Shown here one piece after another: positions 48,385-60,482 of a stretch of DNA of 64,000 nucleotides; position 1 is the stretch's first letter; every line of letters starts with the position of its first letter. The stretch spans positions 1-64,000 of the forward strand of contig JAPLDQ010000047.1 in assembly GCA_026391675.1 (NCBI GenBank), given 5' to 3'. This DNA is from Bacteroidota bacterium. GTDB taxonomy: Bacteria; Bacteroidota; Bacteroidia; Bacteroidales; JACABE01. The notes beneath the pieces are model-generated. The model was given only the letters and a program-made list of their open reading frames with translations, was not told the origin of the DNA and did not search any database. The translations under genes and the position numbers were made by a program.

Positions 48385-48921
48385 ATGACGAAAGAAAATC
48401 AACCATTATTAAATGAAGGAATAATAGCAAGTAAAATCGTTATATTAAGGGATGAGAAAGTAATTCTTGATGTTCATCTTGCAGAACTGTATGAGGTAGA
48501 AACAAGAGTTCTAAAACAAGCTGTACGTAGAAATATTGGTCGTTTCCCTGATGATTTTATGTATCAGCTTACTGATGCTGAAATAGAAGATGTGGTATCA
48601 CAAAATGTGATACCTTCTAAAAGGCATCTTGGTGGTGCTATTCCATTTGCATTTACAGAAAGTGGTGTAGCAATGTTATCAAGCGTACTTAACAGTAAAA
48701 AAGCTATTTATGTGAATATTGCAATAATGCGAACATTTACAAAATTATGAAAAATGTTGAGTACACATAAAGAGATTTTAAAGAAATTTGATCAAATAGA
48801 ATCAAAATTATCATATCATGACGATCAATTTATGCTAATTTTTGAATATCTGAAACAGTTTGAAGAAGCCAAACAACAACATTTAGAACAGAAAAACCGT
48901 AAGAAAATTGGTTATCGATAA
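48385..48921 (+). pseudogene. ORF6N-domain protein interrupted by an in-frame TGA
   Basis: Residues 1-121 are an ORF6N DNA-binding domain (VILRDEKVILDVHLAELYEV, then VLKQAVRRNIGRFPDDFMYQ and AFTESGVAMLSSVL). The frame stops at TGA 48748-48750 and then continues for 57 more codons with the normal C-terminal part (KMLSTHKEILKKFDQIESKL ... RKKIGYR). Sister proteins have Arg (CGA) here, so CGA to TGA is a single change. ORF6N proteins are associated with phages and mobile elements. The N-terminal domain alone could still fold. Confidence 0.82.
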
Positions 48922-49223: not shown

Positions 49224-50159
49224 TTGTTACAAAATCATTACATATCTAATTTTTCAATTTACTGTACAGGCGCATATAGATTCGGATTCAATGGAAAAGA
49301 AAAAGATGATGAGGTAAAAGGCACTGGAAATAGCTTAGATTTTGGTGCAAGGATTTATGATCCAAGGATTGGAAGATGGTTAAGTGTTGATCCGAAAGAT
49401 GATGAATATATTTCTTATAGCCCTTATAATTTTTCTCTTTGTAATCCAATTGCAAATAATGACCCTAATGGTAAATGGGTTGAAAAAAAGATTGTTAGAA
49501 AAGATAAAGATGGTAATATTAAGAAATGGTGGCATTTTTGGGTAAAAACTCAATCAAAAGAAATATCAATTATTGTTCATAATGCAAAATTTTATAATGA
49601 TGACGGTTTTATCTCTGAAAAAAAAGAAGTTGATGGTGAACAAAATACAGTAAAAAGGAAACCAACATTAGATGAATTGCAAAAAAGAGCGGATCTAATT
49701 CAACAAGAAATTGAGAAAAATTTCAATACTGAAATATCAGAGAATGGGAAAAAGGTTACTACTACTGTTACTTTCGATGGGGGTATTAAAGCTATTGATA
49801 ATTTAGATAATGTTGTGACAGATGGAAAAAAACCTGACGACCTAATCATTGCTTCAGATAAAATAACTTCAGAAAAGGGCGATGAAGGATTTATTAATTC
49901 AACATCAGATAACTTAATGTTTATAAAACCCAGATCAGCATACTTAAGCGAAGGATCTGAGAATACTGAATCTCTTGACCCAGTTAGTAGCCATGAGTTT
50001 TTGCATCAAGGTCGTGGCGACCGTAACCATAAAACTGGAGGTCTTTTTAGTCCTGGAAGCAAATTGAATTTTCAAAACTTATGGAAATTTGGACCCGACT
50101 TTAGAAATAGAGGTTTTAAATATGATCCTGATTATAAAAAACTAGAAAACAAAAAGTAA
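49224..50159 (+). CDS. Orphan Rhs tip A: core plus zincin-like toxin candidate (HExxH)
   Basis: A 311-residue fragment with a TTG at its open end and no upstream Rhs repeats. Residues about 20-60 are the Rhs core (YRFGFNGKEKDDEVKGTG, then YDPRIGRWLSVDP), after which the sequence becomes unique. Residues about 80-311 form the variable tip, with HEFLH at residues 257-261 in SSHEFLHQGRGDRNH, a HExxH zinc-metallopeptidase motif, with His269 a possible third ligand. Full-length Rhs proteins are polymorphic toxins delivered by secretion systems; this piece lacks the barrel and is probably a donor cassette. Its stop overlaps the start of the next gene by one base, as in toxin-immunity pairs. Confidence 0.7.
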   Translation: MLQNHYISNFSIYCTGAYRFGFNGKEKDDEVKGTGNSLDFGARIYDPRIGRWLSVDPKDDEYISYSPYNFSLCNPIANNDPNGKWVEKKIVRKDKDGNIKKWWHFWVKTQSKEISIIVHNAKFYNDDGFISEKKEVDGEQNTVKRKPTLDELQKRADLIQQEIEKNFNTEISENGKKVTTTVTFDGGIKAIDNLDNVVTDGKKPDDLIIASDKITSEKGDEGFINSTSDNLMFIKPRSAYLSEGSENTESLDPVSSHEFLHQGRGDRNHKTGGLFSPGSKLNFQNLWKFGPDFRNRGFKYDPDYKKLENKK

Positions 50160-50668
50160 TGAAAAACAATATTTTAAATTTTTTTTTAAGCATTATTATA
50201 TTAACTCTTGTATTAATAATCAGTGAAAATATATTTGGTCAAAAAAAACTTAGATTACATTTTATTTCAAATTATAAAAAAAATGAAACATTTCAGATAT
50301 ATGCTAATGATAGTATTTACGTTATAAAAAATAATCGTTATCATTTATTTAAGGCAATTGATATTATCTTACCGGATAGTTTTAAACGAGACGATAGAAT
50401 TCCAATTCTTATTGAGCATAAATTTTGGTATAATTTTTGGTTTAAAAATACAGGAATTGAAGTTTATTATGAACCTGAAAATAAATATTTATACATTTTA
50501 AGAGATTATAGGCAAAAAGGTCATTATGCAATTGAAGCTCATTGGGCATATAAACCTTATCGAACATCCTATGATTATTTAAAAATGGATGGGTTCTATG
50601 ATAGTGATTCAATCTCTAAAATTTTTCGACCAGATAAAATATATTTTAATAAAAACATTAATAAATAA
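50159..50668 (+). CDS. Putative secreted immunity protein for tip A
   Basis: A 169-residue protein with an N-terminal signal peptide (ILNFFLSIIILTLVLIISE) and a likely cleavage at FG/Q. The mature part is rich in Tyr, Phe and Lys (YKPYRTSYDYLKMDGFYDSD) and has no known domain. It overlaps the zincin-like tip gene by one base. Position, size and export signal make it the candidate immunity protein, which would neutralise the toxin in the periplasm. No homology is recognised, so this is inference from context. Confidence 0.5.
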   Translation: MKNNILNFFLSIIILTLVLIISENIFGQKKLRLHFISNYKKNETFQIYANDSIYVIKNNRYHLFKAIDIILPDSFKRDDRIPILIEHKFWYNFWFKNTGIEVYYEPENKYLYILRDYRQKGHYAIEAHWAYKPYRTSYDYLKMDGFYDSDSISKIFRPDKIYFNKNINK

Positions 50669-50698
50669 TTAATGGATTAATCTTAATTTATCAGGTAT

Positions 50699-50748
50699 CC
50701 AAAATGTCATAAAGTCAATACCGTAGTTTTACAATATTGATAAATAAA
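50699..50748 (+). repeat. Rhs-module leader repeat, copy B (degenerate)
   Basis: CCAAAATGTCATAAA ... TAGTTTTACAATATTG is related to the leader copies at 52258 and 55452. It lies about 110 bp before the tip B start. Confidence 0.6.
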
Positions 50749-50859
50749 GTAGAATGAAAATAATAATTGTAAATAATCTTAGAAGATATTTATAAGTTAG
50801 AAAAACAATTAGTATATTTACAATTTAAAACTTACAACTTAAAACTTGTAAAACGTTTT

Positions 50860-51765
50860 ATGACAGGATATTACATATCAAATTTCTATACCGGCGAGTG
50901 TCGGTTCGGATTCAATGGACAAGAGAAAGACCAGGAGATTTACAACAACCAAAGTACCACTACCGCCCTGTTTTGGGAATATGATGCTAGGATTGGCAGA
51001 AGATGGAATAGAGATCCAAAATCAGATGCTTCTATTTCAAATTATGCTTCTTTTGCAAATAATCCTATATGGTTTTGTGATCCTTTTGGAGATACAATGC
51101 GAATTGCTGGTGTTTCTACTTGGGATAATAATTTATCTAAAAACGGAGAATTTTTTAAGGACAGAATGGGTAAGTTATTTAACGATAAAGTTGATGTAGA
51201 ATACTCAACAAGCAACGATATGGGAGATTACTCAATGACATTTAAGGTGAAGGAAGGCGCAGTATTAAACGAGCAAGAACAAGCAAAGTTTGATTATATT
51301 AATAAAATTAACTCAGATAAAGAAGATTTTAAAGTTTGTTTATTTGGGAATGATGAAGGTGGATATGCACAAATACCATCTAAGCCTGGGTCCTTTTTTA
51401 CAAATAATTTAAAAGTAGATAATGGTAGAGAAACATTTAATGTAGCATTTAATATTGATTATTTAGTTAAAGTTGATAAGAATGCATCTGAGAATGCAAC
51501 TATGACAAGTAAAGATTTAATTCTTTTGGGAATAACAGAAAATAATTATAATACTTATAATAAAATTAGCAATACTAAAATTAAAAGTTTTTATCAAGGG
51601 AAAAATACTAATTTCCTTGGACAAAAATATAACTTATTTGGTTTTAATATTTATAAATGTAAAGCAGTTTTTGAAACAGTAAAATCGAAAACTATAAAAT
51701 GGATTATTCACATTCCTGAACAAGGGGCATATGATCCTAAAAAAATAGATATTTATACTAAATAA
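50860..51765 (+). CDS. Orphan Rhs tip B: second core class, unassigned toxin candidate
   Basis: A 301-residue fragment with ATG start and no repeats upstream. It begins with the shared YYISNFYTGECRFGFNGQEK but then switches to the other Bacteroidota core type (NNQSTTTALFWEYDARIGRR, then NNPIWFCDPFGD). Residues about 80-301 are the tip; I see no catalytic motif. It is rich in Asn, Lys and Phe. A lipoprotein gene follows after 22 bp. The mixed core suggests recombination between two rhs lineages at the conserved box. Confidence 0.6.
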   Translation: MTGYYISNFYTGECRFGFNGQEKDQEIYNNQSTTTALFWEYDARIGRRWNRDPKSDASISNYASFANNPIWFCDPFGDTMRIAGVSTWDNNLSKNGEFFKDRMGKLFNDKVDVEYSTSNDMGDYSMTFKVKEGAVLNEQEQAKFDYINKINSDKEDFKVCLFGNDEGGYAQIPSKPGSFFTNNLKVDNGRETFNVAFNIDYLVKVDKNASENATMTSKDLILLGITENNYNTYNKISNTKIKSFYQGKNTNFLGQKYNLFGFNIYKCKAVFETVKSKTIKWIIHIPEQGAYDPKKIDIYTK

Positions 51766-51787
51766 AAAAAAATAATTTAAAAATACG

Positions 51788-52246
51788 ATGAGAATTAATG
51801 TTTTAATATTTATTTGTGCGATCATTTTATTTTGTGGTGGTTGTAGCTCACATAAATGTAATTGTAGGAATCAGGTTAAAAATTTTAATTACATAGAACC
51901 AAGGTATAAAAGATATCTATTTTCTACAGGACGTTACGAAGAGTCAAAAAAGTATTCAAGTTTTGATTCAATTCCTTTAAAAAGAATAAATAAGCACATT
52001 TATTTAATTCTAAAATGCACTAATATTAAAATATATTTACCCACTAATACATTAGATTTTCCACTATATAAAGATCAAGTAGAAGCATATAGGAGTTGGA
52101 TAAAAAATAATTGTGGGGAGGAATACAAAAAGTATTATACTCCACCGAATGATGATTATATTTATACACCTTGGAAAACCATTAATAAAAAGCGTAAAAA
52201 TGGAAACACATCATTACCAATCAAGGTAAAAACGTTGGTTCGCTAA
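51788..52246 (+). CDS. Putative lipoprotein immunity protein for tip B
   Basis: A 152-residue protein starting MRINVLIFICAIILFCGGC; the Cys at about residue 19 sits in a lipobox-like context, so a lipoprotein. The mature part is basic and tyrosine-rich, with no known domain. It follows tip B after 22 bp. The immunity role is inferred from order and from the same pattern in the other modules. Confidence 0.45.
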   Translation: MRINVLIFICAIILFCGGCSSHKCNCRNQVKNFNYIEPRYKRYLFSTGRYEESKKYSSFDSIPLKRINKHIYLILKCTNIKIYLPTNTLDFPLYKDQVEAYRSWIKNNCGEEYKKYYTPPNDDYIYTPWKTINKKRKNGNTSLPIKVKTLVR

Positions 52247-52257
52247 TTTGTTACCCT

Positions 52258-52308
52258 GCCCAAAACGCCATAAAAACAAAATAATAGTTTTGCACTATTG
52301 GCAATTAA
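52258..52308 (+). repeat. Rhs-module leader repeat, copy C
   Basis: From 52256 the sequence shares 26 identical bases with 55450-55475 (both contain CCCAAAACGCCATAAAAAC), then TAGTTTTGCACTATTGGCAA. TAGTTTTG at 52285-52292 fits the -7 consensus, so the repeat may carry a promoter. Confidence 0.7.
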
Positions 52309-52404
52309 AAACAGGATGAGGAGTTTAGGTTAAGATGACTTTTAGAAGATGTTTTTTTAAGAAGAAAAATAGTTACAATCTGCAATATTTAACTCATAAG
52401 ATAC

Positions 52405-53364
52405 TTGAAATTAAATCATTACATATCAAATTTCATTACAACCGAGTGTCGGTTCGGATTCAATGGGAAAGAAAAGGATGATGAGGTAAAAGGTAATAAT
52501 AACAGCTATGATTTGGGAGCTCGGATTTATGATCCACGAATTGGTAAAATGCTAAGCCCTGATCCTAAAGAAATTGAATATCCTTGGCAAACTACTTATG
52601 CTTATTATGGTAATTCCCCTATATCTCAACTTGATTTCAATGGAGAAGGAGACTATTACAATAAAAATGGTAAACATTTAGGTTCGGATGGGAAAACTGT
52701 TACAGTTGGGGAAGGAAAAGATGCAAAGCAAGTCCCAGATGATAAGGTTTATACTGCTGATGAAAAAAATAAAGATGGAACATTTAGTAATGTTGTTGAT
52801 TTAAATATTACTCATACTCAGTTCTTGAATAAAGCTGCAACAGTATATGGTGAAAGTTCTCACACAAGCGATGAAGAAGCTTGGGCAATTGCAAGTGTGC
52901 ATGAGAATCATCCAGAGAAAGCTGCGTATAGAGCAAATAATTCAGAAGCTAAAAAATTTAAAAAAGCAACTCCAGAAAAGAGAAATGGAACTTTCATGCA
53001 AGTATGTAATGCTGGAGTTATTAATGCCCTTAATGGAGGCTTTGATTATAGTAATGGAGCTGATGCTTGGGATGGAATAGATCAGGCAATAATACGTGGG
53101 AATGAGTGTTCTGAAAATGGGTCTGAATCACATGCTGCTACTATTGGGTGGACTATCAAGAAAACCCTTTTTGATAAATGGAAAACAAACGTTGAAAAAA
53201 TAAATGGAAAAGGAACGTTTGTTGCACCACAACATAATAGAGCCTGGAATTATAAAGGATATAAAAATGTTAATTTAATGAGATATAATGCTACGGCAGT
53301 TCATGGGCCTACCATTTTTTGGAAGACTAGAGCACCAAAAAATGCTTCAACTGAAACCAATTAA
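52405..53364 (+). CDS. Orphan Rhs tip C: core plus cell-wall-hydrolase-like toxin candidate
   Basis: A 319-residue fragment with TTG start. Residues about 8-55 are the Rhs core (CRFGFNGKEKDDEVKGNN, then YDPRIGKMLSPDP). In the tip, AATVYGESSHTSDEEAWAIA (Glu150) and GGFDYSNGADAWDGIDQAI resemble the SleB-type cell-wall hydrolase/lysozyme-like fold, where a Glu after a YGE motif is catalytic. This is a pattern match by eye, not a domain search. A peptidoglycan target fits the secreted partner encoded 4 bp downstream. Confidence 0.6.
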   Translation: MKLNHYISNFITTECRFGFNGKEKDDEVKGNNNSYDLGARIYDPRIGKMLSPDPKEIEYPWQTTYAYYGNSPISQLDFNGEGDYYNKNGKHLGSDGKTVTVGEGKDAKQVPDDKVYTADEKNKDGTFSNVVDLNITHTQFLNKAATVYGESSHTSDEEAWAIASVHENHPEKAAYRANNSEAKKFKKATPEKRNGTFMQVCNAGVINALNGGFDYSNGADAWDGIDQAIIRGNECSENGSESHAATIGWTIKKTLFDKWKTNVEKINGKGTFVAPQHNRAWNYKGYKNVNLMRYNATAVHGPTIFWKTRAPKNASTETN

Positions 53365-53368
53365 GTAT

Positions 53369-54100
53369 ATGAAAAAAATAATATTTTTAGTATCTTTAAT
53401 ATTATTATTAAGTTTTTGTTATGTAAATAATAATTTAAGAAAATATTTAATTGTTGAAAAATATATTATTAAATATGGAAAAGAAAAAAGAGTTTTTGTT
53501 AAATACTTTGATTCAATAAATAATATATTGTTATATAAAGAAGGGAATATTAATATTACTGATTCAACAATTTATAATTATGATTATAAACTTAGAAATG
53601 TTGAAATTATAAATTATTTACCAAATGAAAGTGGTGAATTAATCTTAAATAGTACTAATAATATGAATATTGATAAAATTACAAAAAACTCTTTTTTGCC
53701 TTTTTATACTGATACTTTTGGGTTGTATGATGAAAATAATTTTAAGGAAATTGAAATTAACTATAAGAAAAATTTAAAAATCACTTCACAAATTATTGAT
53801 TCAGAATTGGTTTATAAATTAAAATATTTTGTAAATTCAAAAGTGTTTATAGTTTTACCTTTTACAAATAATAACAGAGGAGTTGACGAATCTGAAATAT
53901 TAGATTCTCTTATATTATATTGTCATAATCTCCGAATATATAAAGAAGATTACTTTTTTAGAAAAAAAACAATTACTAAAAAGTATTCATATGAAGATGA
54001 TCGCTTAACAAAAGTTAAAACAAAAGTTAATTCAACTTTTGTTAAGGATAGTCTTATTGAAACATTTAAATATAGACTTTCTGATCTGCCTTACAAATAA
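53369..54100 (+). CDS. Putative secreted immunity protein for tip C
   Basis: A 243-residue protein from ATG 53369. An open frame extends further upstream but overlaps tip C, so I prefer this start, four bases after the tip stop. The signal peptide is MKKIIFLVSLILLLSFC, with a weak lipobox at Cys17 (F at -1 is unusual). The mature protein is rich in Asn, Lys and Ile with short beta strands. No domain is recognised. Immunity is inferred from the position. Confidence 0.45.
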   Translation: MKKIIFLVSLILLLSFCYVNNNLRKYLIVEKYIIKYGKEKRVFVKYFDSINNILLYKEGNINITDSTIYNYDYKLRNVEIINYLPNESGELILNSTNNMNIDKITKNSFLPFYTDTFGLYDENNFKEIEINYKKNLKITSQIIDSELVYKLKYFVNSKVFIVLPFTNNNRGVDESEILDSLILYCHNLRIYKEDYFFRKKTITKKYSYEDDRLTKVKTKVNSTFVKDSLIETFKYRLSDLPYK

Positions 54101-54464
54101 AGCATTTCTCTTTTTAATGGAAACCACAAAAGAGGTGTACTGTTTCTTACTATTTAGTATTAAAAAAGAGTTAATTTGATTCTATTAGTAATAAAATGAA
54201 ATGAATATACACATAATTCAAGTGTTAATCACTTTTAACACACTTCTCGTAAGATCTAAAACAATTATGGATTTCATATTGTGTATTTTGAATTGTGTTA
54301 ATCTTGTAATTATGATGAACGTTTTTATTTTGAGGCGACATAAGTATAAAATTCTGCATTTTTATCATAACCAAAATTAAAATTCGAATACATACTTATT
54401 TTTTTAAAACCAGATTCATTTAATAATTCAATTAGTTCTCCTTTTTTAAAAGGATACATTTTAA
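54101..54464. other. Remnant-filled gap between modules C and D
   Basis: This 364-bp stretch holds an inverted repeat (GTGTTAATCACTTTTAACAC near 54222) and a minus-strand methyltransferase-like remnant (54325-54459, see separate entry). No intact gene. It looks like a junction where a piece of foreign DNA replaced the 5' part of module D. Confidence 0.55.
54325..54459 (-). pseudogene. C-terminal remnant of a SAM-dependent methyltransferase
   Basis: The 44-codon minus-strand frame reads MYPFKKGELIELLNESGF, then KKISMYSNFNFGYDKNAEFY and ends in TYVASK. The GF..I..Y.DF..GYD...FY.YV pattern is the usual C-terminal strand pair of class I methyltransferases. Nothing of the SAM-binding part remains. 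It ends at the same breakpoint where tip D begins on the plus strand. Confidence 0.4.
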
Positions 54465-54878
54465 AAACCAGGAACAAGTAATCATGAAGGTGGGTTTGGG
54501 TTTGATTTTAATGTTAAATCTATTGGTATAAAAAAAACAAACGGTGTTTTTTCTGAAGAAGCAAAAGAAAAAATGGGGAATTTAAAGGAAACTGCAAAAG
54601 AATTTGGAATTGACTACTTAGGTGCATTTGATGCCGTTCATTTCTCAATTAATCCTGTAAAAGGAGGATATTATGAGAAAAAAGGAGCTGATATAGAAAC
54701 TAATGCTCAATATTATAAAGACAATAAAGATAATATTCCATTTTATAATCCAAATGAGTCAACAAAAAAAGAAGATTACTTGATAGATTTGAATAAGTAT
54801 CAATATAATGATGCAGCAAAAGATAATACTGATTTAAAACCACCCCTTGTTAAAGAACAACCAATAGTAAAAAAATAA
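54465..54878 (+). pseudogene. Orphan Rhs tip D, 5'-truncated (no core)
   Basis: An open frame from 54465 to TAA at 54878, without a start codon before ATG 54573. It begins PGTSNHEGGFGFDFNVKSIG and contains YLGAFDAVHFSINPVKGGYY. The D-x-V-H-F motif recalls the end of M15 D,D-peptidase domains, but the part that would carry other zinc ligands is missing. Proline-rich end. It would not be translated as a working toxin, but it is followed by a lipoprotein gene, so the order tip-lipoprotein is preserved. Confidence 0.5.
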
Positions 54879-54930
54879 TTTTTATAACATAAAATTTATG
54901 TTAGATTTTCTAAAATAAAATCATATAAAA

Positions 54931-55317
54931 ATGAAAAATAATAGAATTATAGGATTATTTATTGTAATATTTGTTATTATACAAAATGTTTCTTGTAATA
55001 TTAATAATAATACACAAAATCATAGTATTGAAAATAAAAATGAAATTAACACAAAAATAAAAGATATACCAGATACTCTTTTTTATTGTGATAAAGACAC
55101 ATTTGCCTTGTATTATAATTTATCTTCAACAGAAATAAAAATAAAAGTATTTAAAAACGCACATAATTTATTTGATAAAATTCTTAATATAAAAGATATT
55201 ATTGGAGATGTTGATTATATTGCACAAGCATATTTTAATAGTCTGTTTTTAACTGATTTTGACAAAGAAAGTCAACAGTTTATTTTTACTACGTATATTA
55301 AAAAAAAAAAACAATAA
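54931..55317 (+). CDS. Lipoprotein, probable immunity of tip D, frameshifted at an A12 tract
   Basis: A 128-residue lipoprotein (MKNNRIIGLFIVIFVIIQNV followed by Ser-Cys) with a serine at -1 of the Cys, a good lipobox. It ends ...YIKKKKQ at a run of 12 A (55300-55311). With 11 A the frame would instead run on to TAG at 55382-55384, adding NNKKFNLEATFKFDIEGNLD and three more residues. The tail encodes regular beta sequence and reads as coding. The tract therefore switches the protein between two C-termini, or is a sequencing artefact. Confidence 0.55.
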   Translation: MKNNRIIGLFIVIFVIIQNVSCNINNNTQNHSIENKNEINTKIKDIPDTLFYCDKDTFALYYNLSSTEIKIKVFKNAHNLFDKILNIKDIIGDVDYIAQAYFNSLFLTDFDKESQQFIFTTYIKKKKQ

Positions 55318-55451
55318 AAAATTTAATCTTGAAGCTACTTTTAAATTTGATATCGAGGGCAATCTTGATGTAATGAGGGAGTAGTTATTCCTTTCTCTTT
55401 AATTGTCCGTTAGAAACTTTATCAAAAGTTAGTCTATGCAAAATGGCCACT

Positions 55452-55501
55452 GCCCAAAACGCCATAAAAACAAAAATTGTTTTGCAATATTGGTAATTAA
55501 A
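55452..55501 (+). repeat. Rhs-module leader repeat, copy E
   Basis: CCCAAAACGCCATAAAAAC then TTGTTTTGCAATATTGGTAA. It shares 26 identical bases with copy C and precedes the truncated core E. Confidence 0.7.
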
Positions 55502-55550
55502 TTTTATTAGTATTTTTACAAATTACAATTTTATAATTTATAAGGATTTT

Positions 55551-55606
55551 GAAACCAATATATTACATATCAAACTACTATACCGGCGAGTGTCGGTTCG
55601 GATTCA
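55551..55606 (+). pseudogene. Rhs core fragment E, cut after RFGF
   Basis: A short piece encoding PIYYISNYYTGECRFGF with the usual leader, then the sequence breaks into the end of a minus-strand gene. It is the left end of a module whose tip was lost or inverted. Confidence 0.6.
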
Positions 55607-55609
55607 TGT

Positions 55610-56086
55610 TTAATTGTCTTCATTTTCTAAAATTAAATTATAGTTTAATGGATCAATGGTATGATATGTTGTCTTATATAAATTCGTACTAACAGCAAAC
55701 TTTTTTAGTTTTTTCACATCGTCTTTGATTCCTCCATTCCTTAAGTTATATCTCTCTAATGAAGTATAAAAATGAGAAAGTTTATCACTAAAATCATCAT
55801 TTAAAAATGACATATTTTCAATTAAATGTTTATAAGCTATGCCTTCTGAATGAGTTTGACGTGCTGAACGATAATGGTCAATGGCCATTTCAGCATGATA
55901 ACGTTCTGAAATAAATTTCATATTATCTTCACCAATTAGTCTTTCTAAAAGGATTTTAGTATCTGTTAGCTTCTTTTTATTTTTTATTTGTACTTTTGTA
56001 TTTAAAAACTTGTTGAAAGAATAATAGTATGAACACCAAGTTATTAATTTGTTATGTATTGATGCAATTAAAGAATTATTAAACAC
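55610..56086 (-). CDS. Helical hypothetical protein without clear start (module fragment E')
   Basis: The first usable start is a GTG at 56086, giving 158 residues, but the frame is open back to 56224, directly after the TAG stop of the upstream gene and in phase with it (IFFSANYNKKEESEIIYLKF). The total open frame is 205 codons with no ATG, GTG or TTG before 56086. The protein is alpha-helical (RYHAEMAIDHYRSARQTHSE) with no recognised domain. It is probably the 3' part of an older immunity or effector gene fused behind module F, ending at the core E breakpoint. Confidence 0.4.
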   Translation of the reverse strand: MFNNSLIASIHNKLITWCSYYYSFNKFLNTKVQIKNKKKLTDTKILLERLIGEDNMKFISERYHAEMAIDHYRSARQTHSEGIAYKHLIENMSFLNDDFSDKLSHFYTSLERYNLRNGGIKDDVKKLKKFAVSTNLYKTTYHTIDPLNYNLILENEDN

Positions 56087-56224
56087 ATTAGTAGTACCAT
56101 ACGTATGAGAAATTTTTATTATTTCAAGTAAACAATAAATTGAATCTGTTATTAAGTGTTGAATAAATTTTAGATATATTATTTCAGATTCTTCTTTTTT
56201 ATTATAATTAGCAGAGAAAAATAT

Positions 56225-56770
56225 CTATTCTATATAATTTCGCTTTTTAGCTTCTTTTTTTAAGTAAGAATTAATTTTATCTTGGTTTTTAATTATAAAA
56301 TCTTTAAACATTTTTTTCTGTTTTGGCCTAGAATAAAGACCCATCCATTCCCAATTTGTAGATATGCTGTCATCATTTTCTGGAGTTCTTATTAAATTAC
56401 AATTCATAATTGCTCGATAGACAACTGTATCAACATTCGGATAAAATCCAAATAAATTAATAAAACTTGGATTTCCATAAGGGAAACATTTGATATTTTT
56501 TATAAAAGAAGAAAATATCTTTATCTCAAGAGTATCTCCAATATAAGAAGTATCAATAATTAATCCTTCAATAAAGCAAATGTTTATATCAACTACCTTA
56601 TTATCAACACATCCTATTTTATTCGATTTAAAATTTGATTCATAATAAAGCCATTTTGCAGCATTGAGCCTTCTATCGTATATACTTTCTTGTTTCTTAT
56701 TACAAAGACATAAAATTAATAAACAAAAAAATAAAATTATTGTATTCAGATAAATATAAAACTTTTTCAT
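56225..56770 (-). CDS. Putative lipoprotein immunity protein for tip F
   Basis: A 181-residue protein with the lipoprotein-type N-terminus MKKFYIYLNTIILFFCLLIL followed by Cys-Leu-Cys. The mature part has DRRLNAAKWLYYESNFKSNK and ends in a lysine-rich helix. It overlaps the JAB-like tip gene by four bases (ATGA), the tightest coupling in the array. No known domain. The immunity role is inferred. Confidence 0.5.
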   Translation of the reverse strand: MKKFYIYLNTIILFFCLLILCLCNKKQESIYDRRLNAAKWLYYESNFKSNKIGCVDNKVVDINICFIEGLIIDTSYIGDTLEIKIFSSFIKNIKCFPYGNPSFINLFGFYPNVDTVVYRAIMNCNLIRTPENDDSISTNWEWMGLYSRPKQKKMFKDFIIKNQDKINSYLKKEAKKRNYIE

Positions 56771-57645
56771 TTTTGTGTTGATCCTTTTTCTAATGTTTTT
56801 TTATCTACAACTATATCATTTTTCATAGATTTACCATAAATATAAATTTGCTCTCTACCAACAATAATATCAAGATTACCTTGGTTTGGATAATCTGCAT
56901 CTAAACTTGGATGATATTCACCTGTCCCAAATCCCGTACTTAAGCCTTCATTTGGGTGATCATGTATAGTGCCAATTTTATTTCCCATTTCTGGTTCATC
57001 TTCAGGAAAACCAGCAACAGTTGTAAGTCCACCCTTTATAGTTTTACTACCAATATTTATATTGCCATTTTTATTATAAAGATTAGATTTTGATTCATTA
57101 AAAAAGCCAGGTGTATATTGTCCAGTTGGAGATTCTTCACTTAAATTATCTTTGCCAACAATTGTATTTTTATTATAAAATGTTCTAAGTGATTTTACAT
57201 CAATAGTAAGTCCCATTTTTCGCCAACGTTCATTAGGCATATTAAAAGAAGATAAATCATCTTTACCTCCCTTCCCTTTGAATATTTTTAAGGAAATTGT
57301 AAAGTGCTTTAAATTTTTATCAGTAATTATAGTTATTGCAGTAGATAGTTTGTCATAAGATGTATGAAGTAAATCACCATTTTGATTATAATAAAGAGTT
57401 GTATCACCACCGGGATCTAAAATACATATTGGATTGTTCTCAAATGCTTCAAAAGGTGATAAGAATGGATATTTTGCTGCTTTAGGGTCAACACTCAACC
57501 ATCTCCCAATCCTCGGATCATAAATTCTTGCACCAAAATCTAAACTATTTCCAGTACCTTTAACCTCATCATCCTTCTCTTTCCCATTGAATCCGAACCG
57601 ACACTCGCCAGTATAGTAATTTGATGTGTAATTCCTTGTTATCAA
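56767..57645 (-). CDS. Orphan Rhs tip F: core plus JAB/JAMM-like toxin candidate
   Basis: A 292-residue fragment on the minus strand, TTG start. Residues about 8-55 are the core (CRFGFNGKEKDDEVKGTG, then YDPRIGRWLSVDP), nearly identical at DNA level to module A. In the tip, GTIHDHPNEGLSTGFGTG (His228, His230, Pro231) and HPSLDADYPNQGN (Ser247, Asp249 or Asp251) reproduce the HxHP...SxxD zinc site of JAB/MPN peptidases, with DIIVGREQIYIYG as the following strand. JAB-type tips are known among polymorphic toxins. A lipoprotein gene overlaps its end by four bases. It is inverted relative to the other modules. Confidence 0.68.
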   Translation of the reverse strand: MITRNYTSNYYTGECRFGFNGKEKDDEVKGTGNSLDFGARIYDPRIGRWLSVDPKAAKYPFLSPFEAFENNPICILDPGGDTTLYYNQNGDLLHTSYDKLSTAITIITDKNLKHFTISLKIFKGKGGKDDLSSFNMPNERWRKMGLTIDVKSLRTFYNKNTIVGKDNLSEESPTGQYTPGFFNESKSNLYNKNGNINIGSKTIKGGLTTVAGFPEDEPEMGNKIGTIHDHPNEGLSTGFGTGEYHPSLDADYPNQGNLDIIVGREQIYIYGKSMKNDIVVDKKTLEKGSTQK

Positions 57646-57684
57646 ACGATTTATGTATTTGATTTTTATAGTCTTATTAATAGG

Positions 57685-59113: not shown

Positions 59114-59326
59114 ATTTCATTATTTATTGTATAGTATCTTTTTTTGAATTTGATTTAAAGCTTTATAAATTGTAAAAATACTAAATAATCCTTGGTAATG
59201 TAATTGTTGTTAGTTAATCTTATTTACCGTTATAAAAATTTGTTTTACCGTAACTAAATTTTATTTTATCGTTGTTGCATTATTAAAGTTGAATTTTAAA
59301 TTATTAAGGTTTTTTAGCGGAGTACG

Positions 59327-59334
59327 CCCCCCCC
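59327..59334 (+). other. C8 homopolymer in a remnant-like gap
   Basis: Eight C in a row in an otherwise AT-rich 274-bp gap (59114-59387), inside a locally GC-richer patch (gcggagtacg before it). Such patches often mark scars of recombination or slippage. No gene is seen in the gap. Confidence 0.4.
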
Positions 59335-59387
59335 TTGTTGCAGGTCAACTATTAACCACAGTTCTACTTTTTATCGGTGTTACTTTA

Positions 59388-60482
59388 TTATTTTCCATTG
59401 CCTTTAGTTACTGTAGGGTTCTTACGAATAAACCCTTCAATAAAATCAGTGCCTGCATAACCCGCTGCTATAAATGCAAAGATTGTTGATTTAGTAAATG
59501 CCAAGTCTGCACTTCCAACGGCAGCAAGCACACCAGCAATAGCTCCAACTGCAGAAGCAATGAACAAACTTAAAACAAGTTGCTGAGTTTTGATAAGTTC
59601 TTTTTGTTCTTGTCCTGTTCTTATAGCTTCGTCTCCAATCTTTTTAATACCCACAACTACTCGAAGTCCTTGACCAACCATTCCAAGAATGGCTCCTAAA
59701 AGAATAATAATTAATGTGTTCATTGGTGTTGATTCCATTGTATTGATTTTTTTATTTGTTGTTGAATTGTTTGTGTTTGAATTAATTGTAACTGGAGTTG
59801 GAGATTCATTTTCCTCATTAAAAGCAGATGCAGATGCCATTGCTTCTTTCTCATCAAGAATTTCTAAATTTGTGATAGGATGGATTTCCCAAGACGTTGC
59901 TCTCCAATTTGTTCTACCAATATTGTCCTTTGGGTCGTCAGCAAAGTTTTCTGTTTCATGACTAAAATCGTAGAATAACCAACCTTGAATTTTCACCATA
60001 TGTCCTTTCATTTTTCCCTTAAGAGCTTCTGTTGTCCAATCAACACCTTGGTCAGCAAGTTTCTTTCTGATTCTTGGGGTAACTTCTACAATGAATCGTT
60101 TTTCGGGTCCTGTATCTTGGTCATTAAGAGTAAGTTCAATGTGAGTGTCTCTAAACAAGGGGTCTGATGTTTTACAATTACAGGTTTCTATCCCACCAAC
60201 TTTAACATCATAAACGTATCCTGTTACTTCAACTGCTTTAGCTTGGTTAAATTTTCCTTTGACAGCAGTGCCATCTATAAAATTTTCTAATGATAACCCA
60301 GTTTCAAAGTCGCCAGCTTTCGGAAAGTTATAACGATTCTTAAAAGGATTTTGATCATACTCTTTAGTCCCTTGCCTAGATGAACCATGCAAATTACAAG
60401 GTTGTCCGTCAATTGTAATTTCGTCTTGTCCATAAGCAACAAATGAAATTACTATCATGAGAAGTGTTAGAATTTTTTTCAT
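59388..60482 (-). CDS. Secreted OB-like domain fused to a multi-TM C-terminus
   Basis: A 364-residue protein. The signal peptide MKKILTLLMIVISFVAYG is followed by an OB-like region at about residues 75-215 with EVTGYVYDVKVGGIETCNCK and GHMVKIQGWLFYDFSHE. This is the form of the OB-like domain that in Bacteroidota often accompanies periplasmic or surface proteins. A Ser/Thr/Asn-rich linker (SPTPVTINSNTNNSTTNKK) leads to three hydrophobic segments (MNTLIIILLGAILGMVGQ; LSLFIASAVGAIAGVLAAV; ...FAFIAAGYAGTDFIEG). The C-terminal half resembles small phage- or element-encoded membrane proteins. Function unknown. Confidence 0.5.
   Translation of the reverse strand: MKKILTLLMIVISFVAYGQDEITIDGQPCNLHGSSRQGTKEYDQNPFKNRYNFPKAGDFETGLSLENFIDGTAVKGKFNQAKAVEVTGYVYDVKVGGIETCNCKTSDPLFRDTHIELTLNDQDTGPEKRFIVEVTPRIRKKLADQGVDWTTEALKGKMKGHMVKIQGWLFYDFSHETENFADDPKDNIGRTNWRATSWEIHPITNLEILDEKEAMASASAFNEENESPTPVTINSNTNNSTTNKKINTMESTPMNTLIIILLGAILGMVGQGLRVVVGIKKIGDEAIRTGQEQKELIKTQQLVLSLFIASAVGAIAGVLAAVGSADLAFTKSTIFAFIAAGYAGTDFIEGFIRKNPTVTKGNGK

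What the first reader, a model, noticed from the sequence alone, without database searches (positions are those of the whole stretch)
54931..55384. A12 tract toggles the C-terminus of a lipoprotein
At 55300-55311 there are 12 A. With 11 A the frame extends by 23 codons of normal-looking sequence to TAG 55382. Slippage there would switch the putative immunity protein on or off, or change its end.
Basis: partly seen in the sequence, partly recalled or inferred. Interest (0 to 1): 0.6.

Follow-up and report, generated by a model that had tools for sequence, protein, structure and literature searches.

The report
Frameshifted lipoprotein in decaying toxin array
A small bacterial lipoprotein gene, probably an immunity gene left in a decaying array of toxin cassettes, has a run of 12 A near its end that most likely shifted it out of frame; an on/off switch is possible but nothing here shows one.

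Summary
The tract is real: A12 at 55300-55311. At 11 A the frame runs to TAG 55382-55384 and gives 150 instead of 128 residues. A12 is rare in this genome: four A/T tracts of 12, none longer, in 4.04 Mb. Of the six tracts of 11 or more, only this one lies in an ORF of 80 aa or more. The out-of-frame tail looks like lost coding sequence: codon score in the range of real gene ends, strand-like alternation, and a stop nearer the repeat that follows four sibling cassettes (66 nt rather than 133; siblings 10-48). Each sign is modest. The surroundings are an orphan Rhs tip/immunity array with broken parts: a peptidase tip lacking its front, a bare tip start, a frame whose first start codon is 46 codons in, an ORF6N gene with an internal stop. 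Best reading: ordinary frameshift decay at a slippery tract. Phase variation or RNA slippage is possible, undemonstrated. It would alter only the C-terminus, and one extra A leads to a third frame, not the tail.

The parts
54931..55317 (+). putative immunity lipoprotein, 128 aa as the sequence stands
   Evidence: signal-like N-terminus MKNNRIIGLFIVIFVIIQNVSC read by eye; no Pfam family
55300..55311 (+). A12 tract
55313..55384 (+). out-of-frame tail, 23 codons, and TAG 55382-55384
54477..54878 (+). Rhs tip remnant: C-terminal part of an M15/VanY-like peptidase, front missing
55451..55503 (+). cassette-end repeat of about 50 bp (right edge approximate)
55535..55606 (+). start of a further Rhs tip, cut off at 55606
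49224..50159 (+). Rhs tip (TIGR03696 over cut-off); 50159-50668 behind it, repeat at 50696
50860..51765 (+). Rhs tip (TIGR03696, 27 bits, under the 32.5 cut-off); 51788-52246 behind it, repeat at 52257
52405..53364 (+). Rhs tip (TIGR03696 over cut-off); 53288-54100 behind it, no repeat found
56767..57645 (-). Rhs tip in opposite direction (TIGR03696 over cut-off); 56225-56770 behind it, no repeat found

Best explanation
The gene is probably the immunity gene of an orphan Rhs tip/immunity cassette that is decaying. Shown: the tip before it lacks its Rhs part and the front of its peptidase domain; the frame behind A12 has several marks of coding sequence. Inferred: slippage in the A tract put the last 23 or so codons out of frame, and the change was tolerated because the cassette is under weak selection. 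As it stands the product would be a 128-residue lipoprotein without its last strand; whether it still works is unknown. Further slippage at 12 A, in DNA or RNA, is likely as a side effect rather than an evolved switch.
For: Tail codon score 0.124 against a median of 0.091 for 49 gene ends (0.187 against 0.138 for 12 array genes). Strand-like alternation reached by 1.1% of 853 stop-free windows and 1.9% of 5000 shuffles. Stop-to-repeat spacing 66 nt for the long form, 133 for the short, 10, 27, 40 and 48 in four siblings. Tip remnant starts at residue 137 of its 242-aa relative, whose VanY match spans 80-183. Other broken parts nearby. A tracts of 11 or more otherwise lie outside ORFs of 80 aa or more here, 0 of 5.
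Against: No homologue proves the long form. Of 521 intergenic stop-free windows 23% score as high as the tail with all genes as model (3.3% with array genes); the 23 in-frame codons just before the tract score lower than the tail (0.003 and -0.037), so the score discriminates poorly at this length. A spacing of 66 is still outside the sibling range. The long form did not fold better: mean pLDDT 39.5 against 53.7 for the short, both poor. The strand and spacing tests were chosen after seeing the tail. Apart from the tract, the 128 codons are open.
Confidence: 0.5

Rival explanations
1. The gene really ends at KKKKQ and the open frame behind it is chance, non-coding sequence.
For: Openness has a 10-13% chance by composition; 6 of 48 other genes do the same. 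23% of intergenic stop-free windows score as high with the general model. The short form gave the better, though poor, model.
Against: Array-trained codon score (3.3% of intergenic, 0.1% of out-of-frame windows), alternation (1.1%), spacing.
Confidence: 0.22
2. Assembly or sequencing error: the cell has an in-frame tract and an intact 150-aa gene.
For: Homopolymers are a usual place for errors (general knowledge); the genome is in 48 contigs, reads not available.
Against: Long genes elsewhere in the window are open, and neighbouring breaks do not lie in homopolymers (ORF6N stop; missing tip front).
Confidence: 0.13
3. Functional slippage: phase variation in DNA, or RNA slippage that makes two forms, as with tssM1 of Citrobacter rodentium.
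For: A11 in tssM1 gives 20-25% frameshifting and both forms are needed (PMC4256274, abstract and passages). The tract is one of the four longest in the genome and the only one of 11 or more in an ORF of 80 aa or more.
Against: Slippage on A runs mostly adds bases (PMC5574713, abstract and passages), and one added A leads to a third frame ending NLILKLLLNLISRAILM, not to the tail. No conservation to judge by. Neighbours are broken too.
Confidence: 0.1

Closest known systems
tssM1 of Citrobacter rodentium (A11 transcriptional slippage, PMC4256274)
   Same: A long A tract shortly before a stop, with a longer product in another frame.
   Different: There added A bases restore the full-length frame, and the loss of the C-terminal domain is judged against a known family; here one added A gives a third frame, and no relatives are known.
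Homopolymer frameshifts in Blochmannia (PMC3017870)
   Same: An indel in a long A tract of an AT-rich genome breaks an otherwise open gene; slippage may partly correct it.
   Different: There orthologues prove the frame (eight genes in B. vafer, abstract); here the gene is an orphan in a mobile-like array.
Orphan Rhs toxin/immunity modules of Salmonella (PMC3967940)
   Same: Tip fragments without start signals, each with a gene behind it.
   Different: Here the tip before the gene has also lost the front of its toxin domain, and the array lies on another contig than the two long Rhs frames.

Membership tests
Orphan Rhs tip/immunity module | tip with the Rhs-associated core end but no full Rhs gene | tested here: inconclusive
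   Met by four other tips of the array (one under the cut-off). The tip before this gene has no core part left; its relative L012 has one.
Orphan Rhs tip/immunity module | small gene directly behind the tip, same strand | tested here: met
   52 nt between 54878 and 54931.
Orphan Rhs tip/immunity module | the gene protects against that tip | not testable with these tools
   needs a bench test
Lipoprotein | signal peptide with a lipobox cysteine | tested here: inconclusive
   Read by eye only: ...IIQNVSC-N; position -3 is N, not the usual L (recalled consensus). No signal-peptide program at hand.
Phase-variable gene (homopolymer) | tract length varies between cells or strains | not testable with these tools
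   no reads; no second copy or homologue
Transcriptional slippage gene (tssM1-like) | added A leads to the longer, functional frame | tested here: not met
   One added A gives the third frame, 147 aa, stop at 55371; the tail needs one A fewer or two more.
Frameshifted gene (decay) | homologues carry the tail in frame | tested here: inconclusive
   no homologue found

The most novel reading that the evidence does not exclude
An Rhs-cassette immunity lipoprotein whose C-terminus is switched by slippage on an A12 tract, so that a clonal population holds cells with two forms of protection.
Probability: 0.07. Interest if true: 0.5.

Novelty: new member of a known kind. Interest (0 to 1): 0.2.

Why it matters
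If it were a switch, it would be a case of phase-variable immunity to a contact-delivered toxin. More probably it is one more example of how orphan toxin/immunity cassettes decay, and a caution: an open frame behind a homopolymer in an AT-rich orphan gene is weak evidence by itself.

Tried and rejected
Homologues of the lipoprotein. The genome search: 148 relatives (8 genomes besides the own at E <= 0.01), 395 of the class (3 besides the own at E <= 0.001), 393 of the order with the read-through form (5 besides the own at E <= 0.001); the sets overlap. The hits had 17-23 bits. I looked at ORFs around L003, L007, L008, L010 and L014: other genes, or frames with stops. PDB by sequence: 0. Pfam and NCBIfam: only hits far under their cut-offs.

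The tip relative was followed for a related immunity gene: one besides the own in 148 genomes, none besides the own in 395 of the phylum at E <= 1e-5, one locus in genome contigs, probably the same record. The gene behind it (ORF 1727-2578 of L012) has no Pfam family (stretch 1811-2575); L012 did not appear in the tblastn.

Structure without an alignment: short form mean pLDDT 53.7, read-through 39.5; too poor to use. In the long model residues 132-140 form a strand, not counted as evidence. No fold search was run.

Terminator behind either stop: none found in 54000-55700. The tail as a gene of its own: rejected, since its frame has no start codon after the tract except an ATG three codons before the stop.

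Papers: PMC4256274, PMC1088944, PMC3017870, PMC5574713 and PMC3967940 were seen as abstract and found passages, not whole. Listings of searches for an immunity gene switched by a homopolymer showed none by title or abstract start; that is no proof of absence.

Full report
Observation. The window holds A12 at 55300-55311 inside the ORF 54931-55317 (+), 128 aa. With 11 A the frame runs to TAG 55382-55384 (150 aa); with 13 A it ends at 55371 (147 aa).

How unusual is the tract? Composition alone gives a run of 12 in 52-72% of simulated windows, but the real genome has few. In 4.04 Mb there are 18 A/T tracts of at least 10: twelve of 10, two of 11, four of 12, none longer (overlapping matches merged by me). 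Of the 17 others, 4 overlap an ORF of at least 80 aa: one by 2 nt, one directly after an ATG, two inside ORFs of 222 and 461 aa. None of the five others with 11 or more does. So this is the only tract of that length in such an ORF. That fits relaxed selection as well as a switch.

Surroundings. 49224-57645 is an array of Rhs tips with genes behind them. Four tips match TIGR03696, three over its cut-off. The own genome has two more such tips on contig C41 and two long Rhs frames, on C30 and C41. Before the lipoprotein lies 54477-54878, an open frame whose first start codon is at 54573. It aligns at 41% identity with the C-terminal part of a tip in another genome of the order (L012:1087-1815) that carries Rhs_assc_core and VanY/Peptidase_M15_4. 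The window copy begins at residue 137 of that tip, so its Rhs part and the front of its peptidase are missing; on its own it matches no Pfam family. The locus found in genome contigs is a Rikenellaceae MAG. That the window belongs to Bacteroidales follows if that MAG is the genome G075, which I infer from nearly the same match position and the same identity.

Other broken parts. A tip start is cut off at 55606, where an inverted block begins; an inverted copy lies at 57588-57659. The frame 56224-55613(-) is open over 204 codons, but its first start codon is GTG 56086, 46 codons in. The ORF6N gene at 48385 has TGA 48748-48750 and goes on open in the same frame to 48921. A 44-aa frame at 54459-54325(-) ends 17 nt before the tip remnant and has no Pfam match; that it is a gene remnant is a guess.

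Is the tail coding? Codon log-odds per codon, coding against intergenic. With all window genes as model: tail 0.124, median of 49 gene ends 0.091; 0.8% of 917 out-of-frame and 23% of 521 intergenic stop-free windows reach the tail. With array genes as model: 0.187, median of 12 gene ends 0.138; 0.1% and 3.3%. The windows overlap, and the 23 in-frame codons just before the tract score lower than the tail (0.003 and -0.037), so the test is weak at this length. The tail's alternation is reached by 1.1% of 853 stop-free windows and by 1.9% of 5000 shuffles. That test and the spacing were chosen after reading the tail.

Spacing. A repeat of about 50 bp lies behind cassette genes at window 50696, 52257 and 55451 and C41 144387(-) and 139935(-). 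It was not found behind 53288-54100 or in the minus-strand block of the window. A pattern for its core has 6 matches in the genome, 1 for the backward control; five are these; the sixth, C25:154793, lies in a stretch where I listed only closed ORFs and found none of 60 aa. From stop to repeat: 27, 10, 40 and 48 nt in the four other cassettes; here 133 nt from the present TAA and 66 nt from the TAG (the 27, 40 and 48 worked out by me). This favours the long form, with n = 4 and the value still outside the range.

Homologues. Structure models without an alignment are too poor to use and do not favour the long form.

Mechanism. Most likely an indel in a slippery tract of an immunity gene whose partner is already broken. 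In the closest parallel, C. rodentium tssM1, added A bases on an A11 tract give 20-25% frameshifting and both forms are needed (PMC4256274). Slippage on A runs mostly adds bases (PMC5574713), and here one added A leads to a third frame, so the parallel does not carry over simply. Runs of A or T of about nine are selected against in coding regions of many bacteria (PMC1088944). Frameshifts in such tracts are known from Blochmannia (PMC3017870), and orphan Rhs tips with immunity genes from Salmonella (PMC3967940).

Verdict. Observation confirmed; toggle not shown; a frameshift in a decaying orphan cassette is the best reading at 0.5. Interest 0.2.

Noticed in passing
window 50696, 52257, 55451; L054 (C41:144387 and 139935, minus strand): A repeat of about 50 bp (TGCCCAAAACGnCATAAA...GTTTTGCAATATTGG) lies 10-48 nt behind the gene that follows four Rhs tips, and behind this lipoprotein. 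It may be a cassette end or a recombination site; unexplained.
   Followed up: partly
window 55535-55606 and 57588-57659: Two Rhs tip starts face each other as a 72-nt inverted repeat (81%) around an inverted tip/gene block; recombination between them could flip the block.
   Followed up: no
window 48385-48921: ORF6N-domain gene with TGA at 48748-48750, open in the same frame afterwards.
   Followed up: partly
window 55613-56224 (minus): Open frame of 204 codons whose first start codon is GTG 56086; probably lost its start.
   Followed up: partly
window 59327-59334: C8, the only G or C run of 7 or more in this 32.6% GC window, just inside the listed short plus-strand ORF 59289-59489 and next to the 3' end of the minus-strand gene 59388-60482.
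   Followed up: no
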